DNA of 64,000 nucleotides. It comes from Streptomyces venezuelae. Lineage in GTDB: Bacteria > Actinomycetota > Actinomycetes > Streptomycetales > Streptomycetaceae. Below the pieces are notes generated by a model. It was not told where the DNA came from. It saw only the letters and a list, made by a program, of their open reading frames with translations, and made no database searches. Every line of letters starts with the position of its first letter. Position 1 is the stretch's first letter. The position numbers and the translations under genes are program-made. Positions 1-8,285 of this stretch are shown one piece after another. The stretch is from assembly GCF_008642315.1 (NCBI RefSeq), contig NZ_CP029192.1, positions 6,138,001 to 6,202,000 of the forward strand, given 5' to 3'.

Positions 1-1465
1 GCGGGCCCTCCGGGGACTCGGCGAGCATGCCGCTGAGGATCACCTCGGCCAGATGCTGCGGCCGAGGGTGCCTCTCGACCGCACGGTGGACCAGTCGCAT
101 GACCGGCAACTGTGTTTCGCCGAGCGCGAGATGACCGGCCAGGCGGAACGCTTCGGGTGAGGCGGTGGAGCGGAAGCGGAGTACGAGCTCCTCGGCGGTG
201 AGGCGGGTGAGGTCCTCGCGGGGGGTGGGGCCCGCGGGCGGTGCGGCGGTTCGCGATGGTGTCGCGGGGCTCGGCGTCAACCAGCCGACAGATCCGGGGA
301 GTTGGGTGCCGCCCGGGTCGGTGACCAGTGCCGCCCAGTTCGCGAGCCAGTTCGCCGCCGGTTCCAGGACGGGCAGCGGCAGGGCGTCCTCGGGGCGTGG
401 CTCTTCGAGGACGTCGTAGGCGGTGAACGCGAGGGCGGCGGAAGGGGCCGCGGGGTGCGGTGCGGACAGCAGGCCGGGGGTCGTCGGCAGGGCGGTGGTG
501 CGCCACAGGCGTTCGGGGAGCGGCTGGACGACGGCCAGCGGCATGCGTGCCGCCCAGCGGTGCAGCGTGTGGTGCCAGCGGACGGCGCCGGGGCCCTCGC
601 GCCACTGGGGGCCCATGCAGTCGCTGATCACCAGGATGACGGTGCGGCCGTCGGCGGGCACGGACGCGGCGCGGGCCGGGACCGTGCCGTCGGGCGCCGC
701 GCGGTGGAGTTCGACCGTGCGGAACACGCCGGACTGGGCGAGCGCGGTGTGCAGTTCCCGGACGAGCGGCCGCCACATGGGCATCGTGGCTCCGCCGTCG
801 TGCACGACGCAGAGCCGGAGCCAGCGCTCCGGGGCCGGTCCGAGGACCGGCAGCCACCCCTGCGGCTGCCCGCCGAGCAGGGCGATGCGGTGGGCGGTGG
901 CCTCCTCGTCGAGGAACCGTCCGGTGGGCGAGGGGACGTAGCGCTTGAGCGGGCGCACCGCGCGTTGCAGGGCGAGCGGGTGGGCGAGCATCGGCGGGAC
1001 GGGCACGTGCAGGGGGATGCGACGGGTGCCGGAGGCCGGTGGGCGCGGTGCGGACAGAGGGAGGGGGGAGGAGGGCGGGGGTGGTGCCGTGTGGCTGTCG
1101 GGCGGGGGCTCAGGGGGGCGGGGCACGCGGAGCGGGCGGTGTGAGCGGGTCGCGAGGTGCAGCGGGATGCGGTCGTCGGTGGGTGGTGGAGCGCTGTCGG
1201 CCGACGGCGACAGGCCGGGCTCCGGGCGGGGTGCGGGGTCCGGTTCGGGGGCCGGGGGCACGGTGCGTTCGGACGGATCCGAGGGGTGGGTCTCGGCCGG
1301 GGCCGGGGGTGGAGGCGCGGCCGGGGGCGGGGGCAAGTGCGCCGCCAGCCACAGGAGTTCCGCCAGTTCGGTCGGGGTGAGGTGACGTGACCCGCCCGAC
1401 GCGTCGGCCAGCAGCCCGGCGAGGTGTGCGGCCTCGCCGGGGCGCGGAGGCCGGTCAGAAGGCAT
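1..1465 (-). CDS. SAV_2336-type vWA-like component of a VMAP ternary system (C-terminus beyond window)
   Basis: The frame is open from an ATG at 1465 to the window edge (about 488 codons). It starts 11 nt inside the end of the upstream MoxR gene, so the two are translationally coupled. Residues 1-40 form a short helical head. About 100 residues of Pro/Ala-rich linker follow. A compact domain from about residue 180 contains LCVVHDGGATM and VILVISDCMG, which resemble strand 1 (DxSxS position) and strand 4 of a von Willebrand A domain with an atypical metal site. A helical segment (LVLRFRSTASPEAFRLA...) then leads out of the window. This layout matches proteins annotated as SAV_2336 N-terminal-domain-related. 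With MoxR and VMAP neighbours it is probably the vWA partner of a predicted conflict system. The vWA reading is inference from motif shape. Confidence 0.75.
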   Translation of the reverse strand, partial: MPSDRPPRPGEAAHLAGLLADASGGSRHLTPTELAELLWLAAHLPPPPAAPPPPAPAETHPSDPSERTVPPAPEPDPAPRPEPGLSPSADSAPPPTDDRIPLHLATRSHRPLRVPRPPEPPPDSHTAPPPPSSPLPLSAPRPPASGTRRIPLHVPVPPMLAHPLALQRAVRPLKRYVPSPTGRFLDEEATAHRIALLGGQPQGWLPVLGPAPERWLRLCVVHDGGATMPMWRPLVRELHTALAQSGVFRTVELHRAAPDGTVPARAASVPADGRTVILVISDCMGPQWREGPGAVRWHHTLHRWAARMPLAVVQPLPERLWRTTALPTTPGLLSAPHPAAPSAALAFTAYDVLEEPRPEDALPLPVLEPAANWLANWAALVTDPGGTQLPGSVGWLTPSPATPSRTAAPPAGPTPREDLTRLTAEELVLRFRSTASPEAFRLAGHLALGETQLPVMRLVHRAVERHPRPQHLAEVILSGMLAESPEGP

Positions 1466-2564
1466 TGCGGCCCGTGTCGGTGGCCGTCGACAGGTAGGGC
1501 ATCAACTGCTGCGCCAGCTCGTCCCGTGAGGCGGCGTCGAGCCCCGCGGCGCCGGTCAGGTAGATGGCGTTGAGGAGCTGGTCGGTGGCGAGTTCGCCGC
1601 CGGCGCCGCGTTCCAGGAAGCGGGTGATGAGGTCGCGGGCGTAGGCGTCGGGCTCGCCCAGGTGGGCGCGGACGATCTCTTCCAGGTGCTCGTCGCGCGG
1701 CTGGCGCAGGCGCAGGGTGACGCAGCGGCGCAGGAAGGCGGGCGGGAACTCGCGCTCCCCGTTGCTGGTGAGGACGACGAAGGGGAAGGCGCGGCAGCGG
1801 ACGCGCCCCTTCTCGACCGTGACCGGGGTGTCGGTGCCGTCCGTGAGGAGGGTCGCGCGCGGGGTGCGTTTGGCGGTCCGCAGCAGCTCGGGGATCTCGT
1901 ACTGGCCCTCCTCCAGGATGTTCAGGAGGTCGTTGGGGAGGTCCAGGTCGCTCTTGTCGATCTCGTCGATGAGGAGGGCGCGGGGGCGGGCGTAGGGCAG
2001 GAGGGCGGTGCCCAGAGGGCCGAGCCGCAGGTGGTCGGCGACGCCCGCGGGGTCCGGCCGGTCGCGGCCGTCCTCGTTCGAGGCGGCGCCCTGGCGTGGG
2101 GTCTGTGGTGCGTGCGGGGTGCGTGGGGCGACCGGTGTTTGCGGACGGGCCCTGGCCTCGTCCCGTGCGGCCCGCCCCGCCGCGTACAACCGGGACAGCG
2201 GGTCGTACTGATAGAGCGCGTCGTGCAGCGTGCTGCGACTCGTGATGTTCCAGCGCAGCACCGGGCCGAGCCGCAGCTCACGGGCGACCGCGTACGCGAG
2301 GCTCGACTTGCCGCTGCCGGGTGGGCCCGTGACCAGGAGCGGTCGCCTCAAGTAGAGCGCGGCGTTGACGAGTTGGACCGCCTGGTCGGTGGCGCGGTAG
2401 GTGCGGGCCCGGTGGGCGCGGTCGGGCGAGGTGGTGGCTCCGTCGTCCGCGGGGGTCTCCAGGGCGGGGCCGCCGTCGAAGGCGCGCCAGGGCGGGGGCG
2501 GCGGCAGGTTGGAGACGCCGTCGTGGGGCGCTGCCCTGCCGGTGTAGACGGGCCACTGGCTCAT
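1455..2564 (-). CDS. MoxR-type AAA+ ATPase of the VMAP ternary system
   Basis: A 369-residue AAA+ ATPase. Walker A GPPGSGKS is at residues 80-87, Walker B LLIDE at 197-201, sensor 1 TSNGE at 266-270 and a candidate arginine finger FLRR at about 277-280. A Pro/Arg-rich insertion of about 45 residues (130-175) interrupts the usual MoxR core. MoxR ATPases act as ATP-driven chaperones or switches for vWA proteins. The gene lies 27 nt after the trypsin/VMAP gene and overlaps the vWA-like gene by 11 nt, so all three should be made together. GGAGAA lies 5-10 nt before the ATG. The specific role in immunity or self-killing is inferred from family context only. Confidence 0.85.
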   Translation of the reverse strand: MSQWPVYTGRAAPHDGVSNLPPPPPWRAFDGGPALETPADDGATTSPDRAHRARTYRATDQAVQLVNAALYLRRPLLVTGPPGSGKSSLAYAVARELRLGPVLRWNITSRSTLHDALYQYDPLSRLYAAGRAARDEARARPQTPVAPRTPHAPQTPRQGAASNEDGRDRPDPAGVADHLRLGPLGTALLPYARPRALLIDEIDKSDLDLPNDLLNILEEGQYEIPELLRTAKRTPRATLLTDGTDTPVTVEKGRVRCRAFPFVVLTSNGEREFPPAFLRRCVTLRLRQPRDEHLEEIVRAHLGEPDAYARDLITRFLERGAGGELATDQLLNAIYLTGAAGLDAASRDELAQQLMPYLSTATDTGRNAF

Positions 2565-2591
2565 GGGGTTCTCCGGGTGGGGTGCGGGCGC

Positions 2592-4289
2592 TCAGCGGGT
2601 GACGGGGGAGAGGTGCGGGGCGGCGGCCGCGTCGGGGAAGCAGCGCGGGTCGTCCCACAGGAGCTGGACGTCCCTCGCCCAGTGCCGCTCGGGGGCGTCG
2701 GACGCCTCCGCGCTCTCGCGCAGGGCGAGGACGTGCCGGGGCAGCTCGGCAGGGGGCAGACCGTCGAGGTACACGGCGAGCCGGTCGAGGAAGTCCGTCC
2801 CGGCGCAGCCGTCCGTCATGGTGTGGTCGCCGTGCTCGCACCCGGTGCGCGGCCACACCAGGATGGGCGCGGGCGCGTTCAGGGACGCCTCGAAGTGGGG
2901 CCGGACGCGGGGCGCGGTCGGGGCCGCGGCGAAGCCCGCCAGGTCCGCCTCGTCCCGACGCAGCAGGAAGCGCAGCTTGCCCGGCTTCTCGCAGGGGCCG
3001 CACTCGACGCGGTGCAGGGTCGCCGAGGGACGGCCGCCGAGCCGCTCCCACTTGCGGGCGAGCTGGTGGCGCAGTCCACCGGTGCGCCGGGAGCGTTCGG
3101 TCACGACGAGGGGGTACGAGCAGCCGAGCGGCGTCGGGTCGTCGGCGCTGCGCTGCCAGTCCGCCACGGGCTCGTTCAGCCATTCGCGTGGCAGTACGAA
3201 GGCGATCAACTCGTCGGCTCCGGACGGGAGGTGCCAGAAGGCCTTCTCGATGTGCTCCTGGACGTGGGCCCGCACCTCGCTCCGGTGCAGGGTGCGCGAG
3301 TCGACCGGGTGGCGGCGGCCCTCGCGGTGGGCGGAGACGGCCACGAGGACCTGGTCGGCGTCGCCGCCGCTGTGCTCGATCTCGACGAGGATGGGCGCCC
3401 ACGCGGGACCCGCCGCCGGGTGGGCGGCCGGGGCGGGACCCGCCGGGGTGTCGAGCAGCGCCGCGAGCCGGTCGGCGAAGCGCGTCGCGGCGTCCGGGTC
3501 CTCGACCTCCCAGAGCAGGTACCAGGCGGCGGCCCACAGCGAGCCGAAGCCGCCCTGCGGGACCGGCGGGCCGAACGGTCCCGCGGCGTCCAGGTACAGC
3601 CGCTCGGGGTCGCGGCCGAACTCCGAGCCCGTGGCCTTCCCGACCAGTTCGCGCAGCCGCTCCGCGGTCGTCGGCGGGTGTACCGGGGTGCGGACCAGCT
3701 CGGTGAGGCGCGGCCAGTAGCGGGACATGACGGAGGTGGGCAGCATCCGGCCGCTGAGGATGTCGGGCGCGCCGTCCGCCGCCGACAGCATGCCGACGAC
3801 CCGGCCGGTGTCGGCGAGGGCGACCGCGGCACCGCTGAACCCGGGCGCGAGACGCTGGCCGTGGGCGCTCCACGCCTCCAGCTGGACCCACTCGCTCGCG
3901 ATCAACTGGGCCGCGGTGGCGCGGTACTCGGCGATCGTGCCTTCGTCGTACCCGCGCGGGAAGCCGTACACGATCAGGCGCGGCCGCGGTTCGCCGTACG
4001 CGTCGCCGGGCGCCGCGAACTCGGCGGGGGCGAGCGGCACCGGGCCGTCCAGTTCCAGCACGGCGAGGTCGCCGGGGTCGTCGTGGCGGCCCTGCCAGTC
4101 GTCGGTGCCGCTCACCGTGGCGTGGACGGGGGCCAGCTCCCTGTGGTGCGGGAAGGTGACGGCGACGGGGTGGCGTCCGTGGTCCCGGACGACGTGCGCG
4201 CAGGTGAGGACGTGCCGCTCCGTGACGAGGAAGCCCGCGCCGACCTCGCCGCCGCAGTCGATGCGGGCGTGCCAGGAGGCGTTCTTCAT
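2592..4289 (-). CDS. Trypsin-like serine protease fused to a VMAP C-terminal domain
   Basis: A 565-residue protein without an obvious signal peptide, so probably cytoplasmic. Residues 1-175 are a trypsin-like fold with the triad His32 (LTCAHVV), Asp74 (DPGDLAVLEL) and Ser152 (APGFSGAAV). The Ser motif is GFSG instead of GDSG. A helical middle follows (about 190-290). The C-terminal 270 residues resemble the VMAP-C domain (vWA-MoxR-associated protein), with the hallmark stretch IAFVLPREWLNEPV. In such predicted systems VMAP links a vWA/MoxR sensor to an effector, and here the protease is the likely effector, activated on a trigger. The ATG at 4289 overlaps the stop of a 15-codon upstream frame (ATGA). 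Its own Shine-Dalgarno is poor, so coupling may drive translation. Confidence 0.82.
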   Translation of the reverse strand: MKNASWHARIDCGGEVGAGFLVTERHVLTCAHVVRDHGRHPVAVTFPHHRELAPVHATVSGTDDWQGRHDDPGDLAVLELDGPVPLAPAEFAAPGDAYGEPRPRLIVYGFPRGYDEGTIAEYRATAAQLIASEWVQLEAWSAHGQRLAPGFSGAAVALADTGRVVGMLSAADGAPDILSGRMLPTSVMSRYWPRLTELVRTPVHPPTTAERLRELVGKATGSEFGRDPERLYLDAAGPFGPPVPQGGFGSLWAAAWYLLWEVEDPDAATRFADRLAALLDTPAGPAPAAHPAAGPAWAPILVEIEHSGGDADQVLVAVSAHREGRRHPVDSRTLHRSEVRAHVQEHIEKAFWHLPSGADELIAFVLPREWLNEPVADWQRSADDPTPLGCSYPLVVTERSRRTGGLRHQLARKWERLGGRPSATLHRVECGPCEKPGKLRFLLRRDEADLAGFAAAPTAPRVRPHFEASLNAPAPILVWPRTGCEHGDHTMTDGCAGTDFLDRLAVYLDGLPPAELPRHVLALRESAEASDAPERHWARDVQLLWDDPRCFPDAAAAPHLSPVTR

Positions 4290-4333
4290 GGCGTACGTGC
4301 CTGCCGGGTCGCAGCACGCGACGAACTGCCCAT
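4286..4333 (-). CDS. Possible 15-codon leader ORF coupled to the protease/VMAP gene
   Basis: A short frame (MGSSSRAATRQARTP, stop) begins 5 nt after a run of six G residues that could act as a strong ribosome binding site. Its TGA overlaps the ATG of the downstream protease gene as ATGA. The downstream gene lacks a good Shine-Dalgarno, so this leader could load ribosomes by termination-reinitiation. I do not recognise the peptide. It may instead be a chance frame in GC-rich DNA. Confidence 0.35.
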   Translation of the reverse strand: MGSSSRAATRQARTP

Positions 4334-4423: not shown

Positions 4424-4604
4424 CCGCCTTCGTGACGTTCGGCGGGCCGGGCGCGGTGTTCCGCCACGGGCGTCCGATGGCGGGTAGTCCCTGTGGCGGC
4501 TTCCCGCCATGCCGCGTCAACTCCTCTGCACCACAGGGCCCCTGACACTTTTCGCAGCACTCGGGCACCACCCCCGCCCGGGTCCGACGAAGAGAGGCAG
4601 CCCC

Positions 4605-7600
4605 ATGACCAGAGCCCCCGTGCGGCGAAGAGCCGCGCTCGTGGCCGCCGCCGGTCTCGCGTTCGCCCTGCTTCCCGCCGGGCAGGGCGCCGCCGCCGAC
4701 GACACGTCCGCGGTCACCCGCACCGCCGATGCAGCCCGCCCCGCCGATGCCGCCCACACCGTCACCCTGATCACCGGGGACAAGGTCACCGTCACCCGGC
4801 TCCCCGGCGGGCGGCAGACCGTCACCGTGGACCGGCCCGCCGGGGCGAGCGGGGCCGTGCGCAGTCAGGTCGTCGACGGGCACGTCACCGTCGTGCCGGA
4901 CGAGGCCCGGCCGTATCTGGGCTCCGGGGTCCTCGACGAGCGGCTCTTCGACGTGACCGGGCTGATCCGGCAAGGGCTCGCGGACCGGGGCGGGGCCGCC
5001 GCCGAGCTGCCCCTCATCGTCACGTACGACAAGCAGGCGCGGGGCGCCCGACAGCTGCCGCGCGGCGTCGAAAAGGTGCGCTCTCTCGAGAGCGTCGGTG
5101 GCGTCGCCGTCAGCACGGAGCGTCCCGGCGCTCTCTGGCGGGCCGTACGCGCCGAGGGGTCCGGCATCGACAAGGTGTGGCTCGACGGCCGCGTCCGGGC
5201 CGACATGGCGCGGAGCAACGAGCAGATCGGCACGCCCGAGGCCTGGGACGCAGGGCTCACCGGCAAGGGCGTCAAGGTCGCCGTCCTCGACACCGGGTTC
5301 GACGGGGAGCATCCGGATCTGAAGGGGCGCGTCGGCGAGAGCAGGAGCTTCATACCGGGTGAGGAGGTCGCCGACCGCAACGGGCACGGCACGCACGTCG
5401 CCTCCACCGTCGGCGGCAGCGGCGCCGCCTCCGAGGGCGGCAAGGAGAAGGGCGTAGCGCCCGGCGCCTCCCTCGCCGTCGGCAAGGTGCTCAGCGACGA
5501 GGGCTTCGGCAGTGAGTCGGAGATCATCGCCGGCATGGAGTGGGCGGCCGAGGACATCGACGCCAAGGTCGTTTCCATGAGCCTCGGCTCGTCCGAGGCG
5601 AGCGACGGCACCGACCCGATGGCCGCCGCCGTCGACTCCCTCTCCGCGAAGACCGGCGCCCTCTTCGTCATCGCCGCGGGCAACACGGGCGCGCCCTCCT
5701 CCATCGGCTCGCCCGGCGCCGCCGACTCCGCGCTGACCGTCGGCGCCGTCGACTCCGCGGACGAGGCCGCGTACTTCACGAGCCAGGGCCCGCGCGTCGG
5801 CGACCACGCGCTGAAGCCCGACCTGTCGGCGCCCGGCGTCGACATCCTCGCCGCCCGCTCCCGGCTCACGGAGGGCGAGGGCTTCTACACCGAGATGAGC
5901 GGTACGTCGATGGCGACGCCGCACGTCGCGGGCGTCGCCGCCCTCCTCGCCGAGCGCCACCCCGACTGGACCGGCGCGCAGCTCAAGGACGCCCTGATGT
6001 CCAGCTCCCGTCAAGCGGACGCGTCTGCCTACGAGTTGGGCTCGGGGCGCGTCAGCGTGCCCGACGCCGTCGGCTCCCGCGTCACCGCCACCGGCAGCGC
6101 CGACCTCGGCTTCTACGGCTGGCCCTACGAGGACAACAAGCCGGTCGAGCGGACTCTCACCTACCGCAACTCCAGTGACAGCGAGGTCGAGTTGAGTCTC
6201 GCCGCGCACGGGGCCGCCCACGGCGTCGTCACGCTCGCCGACGCGACTCTCACCGTCCCCGCCCACGGCACCGCCTCGACCACCGTCACCGGCGACGGCT
6301 CGAAGGCGCCCGTCGGGAACAGCAGCGGGGCCGTCGTCGCGACCACGGGCGGCAAGGAGGTGGCGCACACCGCGTTCGGCCTGGTCAAGGAAGAGGAGCG
6401 GTACACCCTCACCGTCCACGTCAAGGACCGCGACGGAGCCGCGTCCCCCGCCGACCTCGTCGTGCAGCAACTCGCCGAAGGAACCGAGCCGTTCCCGGCC
6501 GCCGTCGACGACTCCGGCACGCTGAAGCTCCGCCTGAAGCCCGGCACGTACGCCCTGTCGACCTTCCTCGACGTGCGTGGCGGCAAGGGCGACGACTCCC
6601 TCGGCCTCGGCTTCCTCGCCGACCCGCAGGTCCGCCTCGACCGGGACCGCGCCATCACCCTGGACGGGCGCACGCTCCGCGAGATCAAGGCCGACGTGGG
6701 CCGGCGCACCGAGACCCGGCAGCTGCTCATGGAGTACGACCGCAAGGCCGGCGGCGCCGACCTCATGGGCGCCGTCCAGGTGCCCGTCAAGTACGACAGC
6801 GTCTTCGCCGCGCCCACCGAGAAGGTCACCGAAGGCAGCTTCGAGTACCGCACGGTGTGGCGGCTCGGCAAGCCCCTCGTGGACGTGAAGGGCCTGCGCG
6901 AGGCCGTCGCCCAGCCGGGCGGGACGATCGCCGAGGGGCGGGAGAAGTGGGCGCTCGTCGACGCCGGTGACGGGACGCCGGCCGCGTACGAGGGCAAGGA
7001 CGTCCGCGGCAAGGCCGTCGTCGTGCGCCGCACGGACGCGGTCACCCCGGCGCAGCTGGGACAGGCCGCGCAGGACGCGGGTGCGCGGGCACTGTTCGTG
7101 ACGGACGACCGGCCGGGCCGCCTCAACGCCTGGTTCGGCACGGACGACAACGGCGACCGGCCGCTGCAGATCGCCACGGTCGATGCCGCGGACGGGGCCC
7201 GGCTCATCGCCGCGGCGAAGACGGGGAAACGGATCGAGAGCACCGGGACCGTCAACACCCCCTATGTGTACGACCTTTCGGAAGGGCATGAAGGGGCTGT
7301 CCCCAGGAGGGACCTCACGTACGAACCCACCAAGCGTGAACTCGCCACGCTGGACACGAAGTTCCACGCCGTGAAGCCCGCGGCGGGCGGCGAGTTCCGC
7401 TACTCCGTCACCGACACCTTCCCCATCGGCTTCGGCTTCCAGGAGAAGGTCGACCTCTCGGCCGAGCGCACCGAGTACGTCTCCATGGGCAGGGACCAGC
7501 TGTGGCACGAGTCGGTGTCCACCGGGCCCGGCGCGCTGGAGGAGCGCAGCGGTCTGGTCGCCTACCAGGGCGGCAGGCGCACCGGTCTCGACTGGTTCAA

Positions 7601-8285
7601 GCCGGTCCTGCACCCGTGGCTCGGCACCGGGCTCGGCTGGGGCCAGACGCGCAGCGGCAACGACCTGGCGTTCAACGTGCCGGGCTGGGGCGACTCGGGA
7701 CCCGACCACACCGGCTTCGGCGACGTCTGGAACGAGGAGTCGATGACGCAGGTCAGCGAGGTCTTCGTGGACGGCGTGAGCGCCGACCGGCGCAAGAGCT
7801 CCGGCGTGTACGTGTGGGACGCGGACCCCGCCGAGCACACGTACAAGGTCGTCACCGACACGACGCTGGACCCCGAGCGCTGGCAGCTCGCGACGAAGGG
7901 CCACGCCGAGTGGACCTTCAGGTCCAAGGAGACCCCCGCGGACGAGAAGACGTTCCTGCCGCTGCTCAACCTCGGCTTCGACGTGGACACGGACCTCGCG
8001 GGCACGGTGCGGGGCGGCCGGACCGTCGACGTCGGGATCTTCGCCGAGTACGTGAAGGGGGCGGCGGACACCGGTGCCATCGGGCGCGGCAAGCTCTCCG
8101 TCTCGTACGACGAGGGGAAGATCTGGCGGGACGTGCGCCTGCACCGGGACGGGGGGAAGGCCGCCTGGGAGGGCGAGGTGAAGGTGCCGCGCGACGCCCG
8201 GTCGGTGTCCTTGCGGGCCTCGGCGGGCGACGACCGGGGCGGGGCCGTTTCCCAGGAGATCATCCGGGCGGTGGGGGTGCGGTAG
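4605..8285 (+). CDS. Large secreted S8 (subtilisin-like) serine protease
   Basis: A 1226-residue preproprotein with a Sec signal (RRR then a hydrophobic core, cleavage near AAA-D at about residue 32) and a propeptide containing the Streptomyces motif [13 protein letters not shown]. The catalytic domain has Asp229 (VLDTGFDG), His261 (NGHGTHVAS) and Ser435 ([12 protein letters not shown]), with the oxyanion Asn in IAAGNTG. About 750 residues of beta-rich C-terminal extension follow, which is usual for the long streptomycete subtilases. GAGAGG precedes the ATG by 7 nt. The gene is transcribed divergently from the VMAP operon and stands alone. It is probably an extracellular protease for nutrient acquisition. 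The substrate is unknown. Confidence 0.93.

What the first reader, a model, noticed from the sequence alone, without database searches (positions are those of the whole stretch)
1..4333. Three-gene trypsin/VMAP - MoxR - vWA-like conflict system
Three coupled minus-strand genes encode a protease (triad His32/Asp74/Ser152) fused to a VMAP-C-like domain, a MoxR AAA ATPase and a SAV_2336-type protein with a degenerate vWA-like domain. Predicted VMAP ternary systems of multicellular bacteria are thought to sense invasion and fire a toxic effector. Here the effector would be an intracellular protease. I know of no experimental work on this arrangement.
Basis: partly seen in the sequence, partly recalled or inferred. 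Interest (0 to 1): 0.78.

Follow-up and report, generated by a model that had tools for sequence, protein, structure and literature searches.

The report
Protease-switch conflict system with dead tail
A three-gene bacterial system of a known but untested kind, thought to sense invaders, couples an intact protease to a molecular motor and to a long protein tail of signalling-type domains that have mostly lost their working residues.

Summary
Three coupled minus-strand genes encode a trypsin-like protease fused to VMAP-C, a MoxR ATPase and a SAV_2336-type vWA protein: a member of the VMAP ternary systems of Kaur et al. 2020 (PMC7159879). VMAP-C occurs in 101 of 121 sampled genomes of the genus; this genome has two.

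The window cuts the third gene. The full protein (1372 aa) carries, behind the vWA part, a pseudokinase, an AfsR-like SARP domain, a weakly identified cyclase-like region and an HAD fold; kinase, SARP and HAD have lost key residues. The protease triad is intact in 31 of 31 (window and 30 relatives) and in 42 of 42 trypsin-VMAPs of a wider, partly overlapping set. In four close pairs dN/dS is 0.06-0.22 for protease, MoxR and vWA, and 0.31-1.04 for tail domains.

I infer that the protease is the output and the decayed, fast-changing tail the recognition or regulatory surface. The published alternative: the protease frees the tail as effector. Antiphage function was not tested; I found no experiment. 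New member of a known kind, useful because it makes effector versus sensor testable.

The parts
2592..4289 (-). VMAP gene, 565 aa: N-terminal trypsin/HtrA-like protease, variable helical middle, C-terminal VMAP-C
   Evidence: structure model
3789..4241 (-). Trypsin_2 domain (residues 17-167); His32 codon 4194-4196, Asp74 codon 4068-4070, Ser152 codon 3834-3836
   Evidence: HtrA/DegS-type fold
2646..3356 (-). VMAP-C domain (residues 312-548)
   Evidence: PF20028, 139.9 bits against cut-off 27
1455..2564 (-). MoxR AAA+ ATPase, 369 aa, with N-terminal motifs WPVYTG and PPWR, GPPGSGKS (Walker A), LLIDEIDK (Walker B), FLRRC (Arg finger)
   Evidence: names of the AAA+ motifs are recalled
1..1465 (-). 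5' part of the SAV_2336-type vWA gene (residues 1-488 of 1372; the gene continues to G000:C1:6135347, outside the window)
1..1012 (-). window part of the vWA-like domain and its C-terminal extension (residues 152-488); first metal-site motif degenerate (DGGAT where DASSS stands in some other family members)

Best explanation
It is a chromosomal VMAP ternary system. SHOWN by sequence: a VMAP with an intact HtrA-like serine protease, a MoxR AAA+ motor with intact ATPase motifs, and a 1372-residue vWA protein whose tail holds a pseudokinase, an AfsR-like SARP domain and an HAD fold that have lost catalytic or DNA-contact residues, plus a weakly identified cyclase-like region. INFERRED: the three proteins form a complex that is off at rest. 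The fast-changing tail, with the variable middle of the VMAP, is the surface that meets an invader protein or a host partner touched by it. This is passed through the vWA domain to MoxR, which uses ATP to remodel the complex and free or align the protease. The protease is the likeliest output: it cleaves cell or invader proteins and stops the infected hypha. Defence as the purpose is inferred from the family, not tested.
For: Identity. Protease kept intact: triad in 31 of 31 (window + 30 relatives) and in 42 of 42 trypsin-VMAPs among 61 VMAP-C systems of the genus. Tail decayed: of 26 kinase domains in the vWA proteins none has all three of the Lys, catalytic-loop Asp and DFG Asp; the first Asp of HAD motif I is replaced in 20 of 20; the window's SARP keeps 3 of 12 DNA-contact residues printed for AfsR (PMC10936776, passages). 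Rates: mean pairwise identity over 24 systems is MoxR 80, vWA 69, protease 67, VMAP-C 57, against kinase 38, SARP 44, cyclase-like 32, HAD 44 percent. dN/dS in four close pairs: protease, MoxR and vWA 0.06-0.22; tail domains 0.31-1.04.
Against: Inactive domains can still be effectors: Kaur et al. propose decoy or dominant-negative action. Fast evolution of the tail may be relaxed constraint rather than recognition. VMAP-C reaches 0.32-0.33 and the VMAP middle 0.47 in some pairs, so the VMAP is not uniformly constrained. The order of tail domains is stable in most of this clade. The wider triad count is biased: proteases were found with a profile grown from intact ones, so decayed ones could be among the 19 of 61 without a hit. 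One relative (L040) has VMAP and MoxR without a vWA gene. The locus sits in a fixed chromosomal slot. No substrate, trigger or phenotype is known.
Confidence: 0.5

Rival explanations
1. Published model (Kaur et al. 2020): the VMAP senses the invader, MoxR remodels the complex, and the VMAP protease cuts so that the tail of the vWA protein is released as effector; dead domains act as decoys, binders or dominant negatives, and the SARP part might act on transcription.
For: Sections of PMC7159879 read: effectors lie C-terminal to vWA, many are inactive versions, and kinase-wHTH and kinase/cyclase-HAD combinations are named. The full protein here has that layout.
Against: The window's SARP differs from AfsR at 9 of 12 DNA-contact residues, three basic residues of the recognition helix among them, so a released transcription factor is unlikely in this strain; other members keep up to 8 of 12. 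A conserved FATV-type motif between core and tail looked like a cut site, but similar elements stand in systems without a VMAP trypsin.
Confidence: 0.3
2. A housekeeping or developmental regulator rather than a defence system: a protease switch inherited at one place beside an MreB-like gene.
For: MreB-like gene behind the system in 20 of 30 relatives (two of them cut by the locus end) and the S8 subtilase upstream in 12 of 30 (contigs that end early count as misses). Of 10 genomes with VMAP matches that together span most of the protein and that were searched for MreB, 9 have MreB within 10 kb. Empty slots: in G040 and G010 the two flanking matches are about 970 and 440 bases apart.
Against: An MreB-like match is in 39 of 39 genomes searched, with or without the trio, so the link may only be place. 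G053 has the VMAP but not beside MreB. Tail domains change fast, which does not fit a conserved housekeeping role.
Confidence: 0.15
3. Chance ORFs or antisense frames in GC-rich DNA.
For: One search lists long overlapping frames on both strands in this stretch of about 76% GC.
Against: VMAP-C, SAV_2336_NTERM and AAA matches, relatives with the same order and dN/dS well below 1 in the core.
Confidence: 0.01

Closest known systems
VMAP ternary systems (MoxR-vWA-centric subsystem 1; Kaur et al. 2020, eLife, PMC7159879; sections read)
   Same: Gene order VMAP-MoxR-vWA, trypsin fused to VMAP-C, MoxR N-terminal motifs, vWA protein with variable and often inactive tail domains, several systems in one genome.
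   Different: No Trypco gene beside this one. A stretch that most relatives have between the cyclase-like and HAD parts (Band7-like by the paper's description and recall) is missing from the window's protein. The tail's wHTH is AfsR/SARP-like with BTAD; the words BTAD, SARP and AfsR do not occur in that paper's main text.
DGR-linked VMAP systems (PMC10907252, passages read)
   Same: Trypsin-VMAP, MoxR and vWA protein; that paper proposes the vWA protein as sensor and the protease as effector.
   Different: There the vWA tail ends in C-type lectin domains diversified by a retroelement; here it is a string of decayed domains, and I did not search for a retroelement.
Second system of the same genome (L010, G000:C1 about 1.566-1.573 Mb)
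   Same: Trypsin-VMAP-C, MoxR and SAV_2336-type vWA gene in the same order.
   Different: VMAP of 753 aa, tail with an FtsK-like match and TPRs, and a Trypco1 match just upstream.
HtrA/DegS-type serine proteases
   Different: VMAP-C instead of a PDZ domain. Secretion signal not tested.

Membership tests
VMAP ternary system | VMAP-C domain | tested here: met
   PF20028 139.9 bits, cut-off 27
[quoted passage not shown]
   WPVYTG, PPWR, Walker A and B, Arg finger in the window; of 30 MoxR proteins (window + 29) one lacks the Trp of the first motif (L026) and one the pattern LTSN (L032)
VMAP ternary system | vWA domain protein as third gene | tested here: met
   (SAV_2336_NTERM 410 bits). That this family is vWA-like: 8 of 40 members match VWA_CoxE at E<=1, best 4.8e-6, and several carry DASSSM. 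The window fragment itself matches no Pfam model at E<=1; fold of that part inconclusive (low pLDDT)
VMAP ternary system | order VMAP - MoxR - vWA on one strand | tested here: met
   window. Relatives: 23 of 30 show all three; L039 has the vWA gene broken by an assembly gap and its VMAP in two frames; 4 contigs end early (L012, L022, L026, L036); L040 lacks the vWA gene; L041 is a protease on another protein
VMAP ternary system | N-terminal helix motif of the vWA protein, [D/E]xxx[D/E]xxx-aromatic | tested here: inconclusive
   a conserved ELAELLW stands there, i.e. E-x-x-E-x-x-W, with tighter spacing than the printed motif
VMAP ternary system | variable multi-domain tail behind the vWA part | tested here: met
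VMAP ternary system | Trypco1 or Trypco2 gene beside trypsin-VMAPs (frequent, not obligatory) | tested here: not met
   2 Trypco1 and 3 Trypco2 places in the genome, none near 6.13-6.15 Mb; one Trypco1 is at the second system. An optional feature, so membership stands
VMAP ternary system | action against invaders | not testable with these tools
   predicted for the whole family; no experiment found
Active trypsin-like protease | His-Asp-Ser triad in an S1 fold (activity itself not testable here) | tested here: met
Active Ser/Thr kinase (tail) | VAIK Lys, HRD Asp, DFG Asp | tested here: not met
   window: Gln, Ala (HGAIS), Gly (CGC); 0 of 26 domains have all three (alignment to solved kinases)
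SARP transcription activator (tail) | AfsR DNA-contact residues | tested here: not met
   3 of 12 same as AfsR in the window; 1-8 of 12 in the other 23 SARP domains

The most novel reading that the evidence does not exclude
The tail of the vWA protein is an integrated bait: dead copies of host signalling proteins (kinase, antibiotic-type regulator, cyclase-like, HAD phosphatase) are held on a vWA-MoxR switch so that invader proteins aimed at the live host proteins bind the copies and fire a cytosolic protease. This would be a bacterial counterpart of integrated decoys of plant immune receptors (that comparison is recalled, from no call). It joins two printed ideas, decoys and sensing by the vWA protein, in a way that I did not see in the passages and sections read.
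Probability: 0.2. Interest if true: 0.8.

Novelty: new member of a known kind. Interest (0 to 1): 0.38.

Why it matters
VMAP-C proteins are in most sampled genomes of the genus (101 of 121), yet which part of these systems senses and which part acts is, in the papers I saw, argued from gene layouts. In this clade the contrast is clean: one protease whose triad is kept under strong constraint, and a tail whose domains have lost working residues while changing fast. That makes the choice between 'protease frees the tail' and 'tail triggers the protease' testable with single-residue changes in a laboratory Streptomyces.

Tried and rejected
Junction motif: a conserved FATV..E.VR.LG element between the vWA core and the tail looked like a candidate cleavage or docking site. 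My pattern was too strict (9 of 24 clade members; 6 of 42 trypsin and 0 of 19 non-trypsin systems). Read by eye, related elements (PFATVTAQALRHLSG in L062, PFAAASPELLSRLG in L077, FLRVELTALHALSG in L056) also stand in systems without a VMAP trypsin, so I dropped it as protease-specific.

Released transcription factor: dropped for this strain because of the lost AfsR contact residues; it stays open for members with 8 of 12.

Fold of VMAP-C: the structure lists were filled by the protease part, so they say nothing about VMAP-C; a profile search of solved structures found only proteases. Fold of the vWA part: the model of the relative L024 has low confidence there (mean pLDDT 65.3, pTM 0.34) and the lists were filled by HAD proteins; a profile search of solved structures with 40 vWA segments found nothing at E<=1.

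Cyclase-like region: no library family matched it in the proteins scanned; the name rests on position, on Kaur et al. and on recalled similarity. The Band7-like label is likewise from the paper and recall. HAD and kinase motif names are recalled.

PADLOC: matches only to single parts of other systems (protease part best Avs1b, E 1e-8; kinase part best PD-T4-6, E 6.1e-18; MoxR best IetA, E 2e-5); no model for this system was hit.

Limits: dN/dS is a simple Nei-Gojobori count on four pairs that I chose for closeness (two share L016), without a significance test. Pairwise identities cover 24 systems; L039, L040, L041 and four short contigs were dropped. Structure alignment A1 held 26 of 30 relatives, A2 22 vWA proteins. 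L068 also has a trypsin-like match inside its vWA ORF, whose triad I did not check. The 39 genomes were picked by me; in G004 and G015 the two flanking genes lie about 4.6 kb apart in another arrangement, and what stands between them was not looked at.

Full report
WHAT IS THERE. The window is G000:C1:6138001-6202000 of an 8.94 Mb one-contig genome. The 30 named relatives found are 29 Streptomyces and one Kitasatospora. Three minus-strand genes stand at the left edge: a 565-aa VMAP (2592-4289), a 369-aa MoxR (1455-2564) and a third gene cut by the window. I took the missing stretch from the same genome. The third gene codes for 1372 aa (L009:5347-9465), overlaps MoxR by 11 bases, and the VMAP-MoxR gap is 27 bases.

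ARE THE PARTS ALIVE. Triad: 31 of 31 in the window and 30 relatives, and in all 42 trypsin-bearing VMAPs of 61 wider systems (60 places that I picked, plus the second system of this genome). The wider proteases were found with a profile grown from intact ones, so decayed proteases may be missed, and the set overlaps the 30 relatives. Kinase: 0 of 26 domains with all three catalytic residues; the Lys is kept only in L029, which also keeps the DFG Asp. HAD: motif I reads GFDG or similar, with Gly (19) or Ser (1) for the first Asp, in 20 of 20. SARP: 3 of 12 AfsR contacts in the window, 1 to 8 in the other 23 domains, with contact residues as printed in PMC10936776 (passages). The cyclase-like region was not tested for active residues. 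So the protease and the MoxR motor are the only enzymes of this system that I could recognise as intact.

RATES. Over 24 systems mean pairwise identity is MoxR 79.9, vWA 69.3, protease 67.2, VMAP-C 57.0, VMAP middle 50.5, SARP 43.6, HAD 43.5, kinase 38.2, cyclase-like 32.0 percent. In four close pairs dN/dS is 0.06-0.22 for protease, MoxR and vWA, 0.10-0.33 for VMAP-C, 0.16-0.47 for the VMAP middle, and 0.31-1.04 for the tail domains. Kaur et al. had reported fast evolution of the vWA and VMAP components as wholes; in this clade it lies mostly in the tail and partly in the VMAP middle.

LINKAGE AND PLACE. Of 30 relatives, 29 have MoxR behind the VMAP; 23 show all three genes; L039 has an assembly gap in the vWA gene and its VMAP in two frames; four contigs end early; L040 (S. 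mexicanus) has no vWA gene behind MoxR; and L041 (S. viridochromogenes) has the same kind of protease fused to iHD-CE and HSP90-type domains instead. The usual place is between an S8 subtilase and an MreB-like gene: MreB-like behind the system in 20 of 30 relatives, S8 upstream in 12 of 30 (further S8 matches lie on the other side in L025 and L027 and as small pieces in L021), early contig ends counted as misses. Of 10 genomes with VMAP matches spanning most of the protein that I searched for both flanks, 9 have MreB within 10 kb and 6 have S8 adjacent; G053 has neither. In two genomes without the trio, G040 and G010, the flanking matches are about 970 and 440 bases apart; in G004 and G015 they stand about 4.6 kb apart in another arrangement that I did not open. 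So it seems to come and go at a stable chromosomal site. Systems of this kind are common: VMAP-C in 101 of 121 and SAV_2336_NTERM in 107 of 121 sampled genomes of the genus, 104 over the cut-off; two of each here.

HOW IT MAY WORK. Shown: gene order, domain content, which active sites are kept, relative rates. Inferred: complex formation, ATP-driven switch, trigger and target. Two models are in print. Kaur et al. (sections read): VMAP senses, peptidase releases the tail effectors. PMC10907252 (passages read): the vWA protein senses and the VMAP protease acts. In this clade the intact, constrained part is the protease and the decayed, fast-changing part is the tail, which I read as leaning to the second model, at about 0.5 against 0.3. 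Relaxed constraint on a tail of little importance would give the same numbers.

NOVELTY. The arrangement is catalogued by Kaur et al., including inactive kinases, cyclases and HAD domains in the tail and kinase-wHTH couplings. What I add, as far as the sections and passages read go, is the reading of the wHTH as AfsR/SARP-like with lost DNA contacts, the domain-by-domain rates, and the fixed slot. Vwa-MoxR-VMAP genes near type III CRISPR loci are reported in PMC10910872 (passages). My searches for experiments cover open-access papers held in the library and listed none on this kind; that is not proof of absence.

Noticed in passing
L041:9980-14773: In S. viridochromogenes a relative of this protease domain (57% in the best segment, residues 3-201) is the N-terminus of a 1597-aa protein with iHD-CE, HSP90-type ATPase and wHTH-HSP90-associated matches: the protease module moves between switch scaffolds.
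   Followed up: partly
L040:11767-12795 and downstream: S. mexicanus has VMAP and MoxR of this clade but no vWA gene found behind MoxR; no run of N in that locus.
   Followed up: partly
L010 (G000:C1:1565883-1572861): Second VMAP ternary system of the same genome, with a Trypco1 match upstream and a TPR tail.
   Followed up: partly
L052, L053, L054, L056, L058: Five VMAP-C genes are followed directly by a SAV_2336-type gene, with no MoxR match on that strand within 4 kb behind the VMAP; the vWA protein of L052 seems to carry an NB-ARC-TPR-like tail (recalled from its sequence, not scanned).
   Followed up: no
L068 vWA ORF: A trypsin-like match lies inside the vWA ORF, the 'effector position' of Kaur et al.; its triad was not checked.
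   Followed up: no
   Followed up: no
4509-8285: Divergent S8 subtilase gene beside the VMAP, upstream of the system in 12 of 30 relatives.
   Followed up: partly
L009:4058-5155 (left of the window): MreB/Mbl-like gene behind the vWA gene, 81-95% identical where found in relatives, with a match in 39 of 39 genomes searched (down to 59% identity); whether the shared place means a shared role is open.
   Followed up: partly
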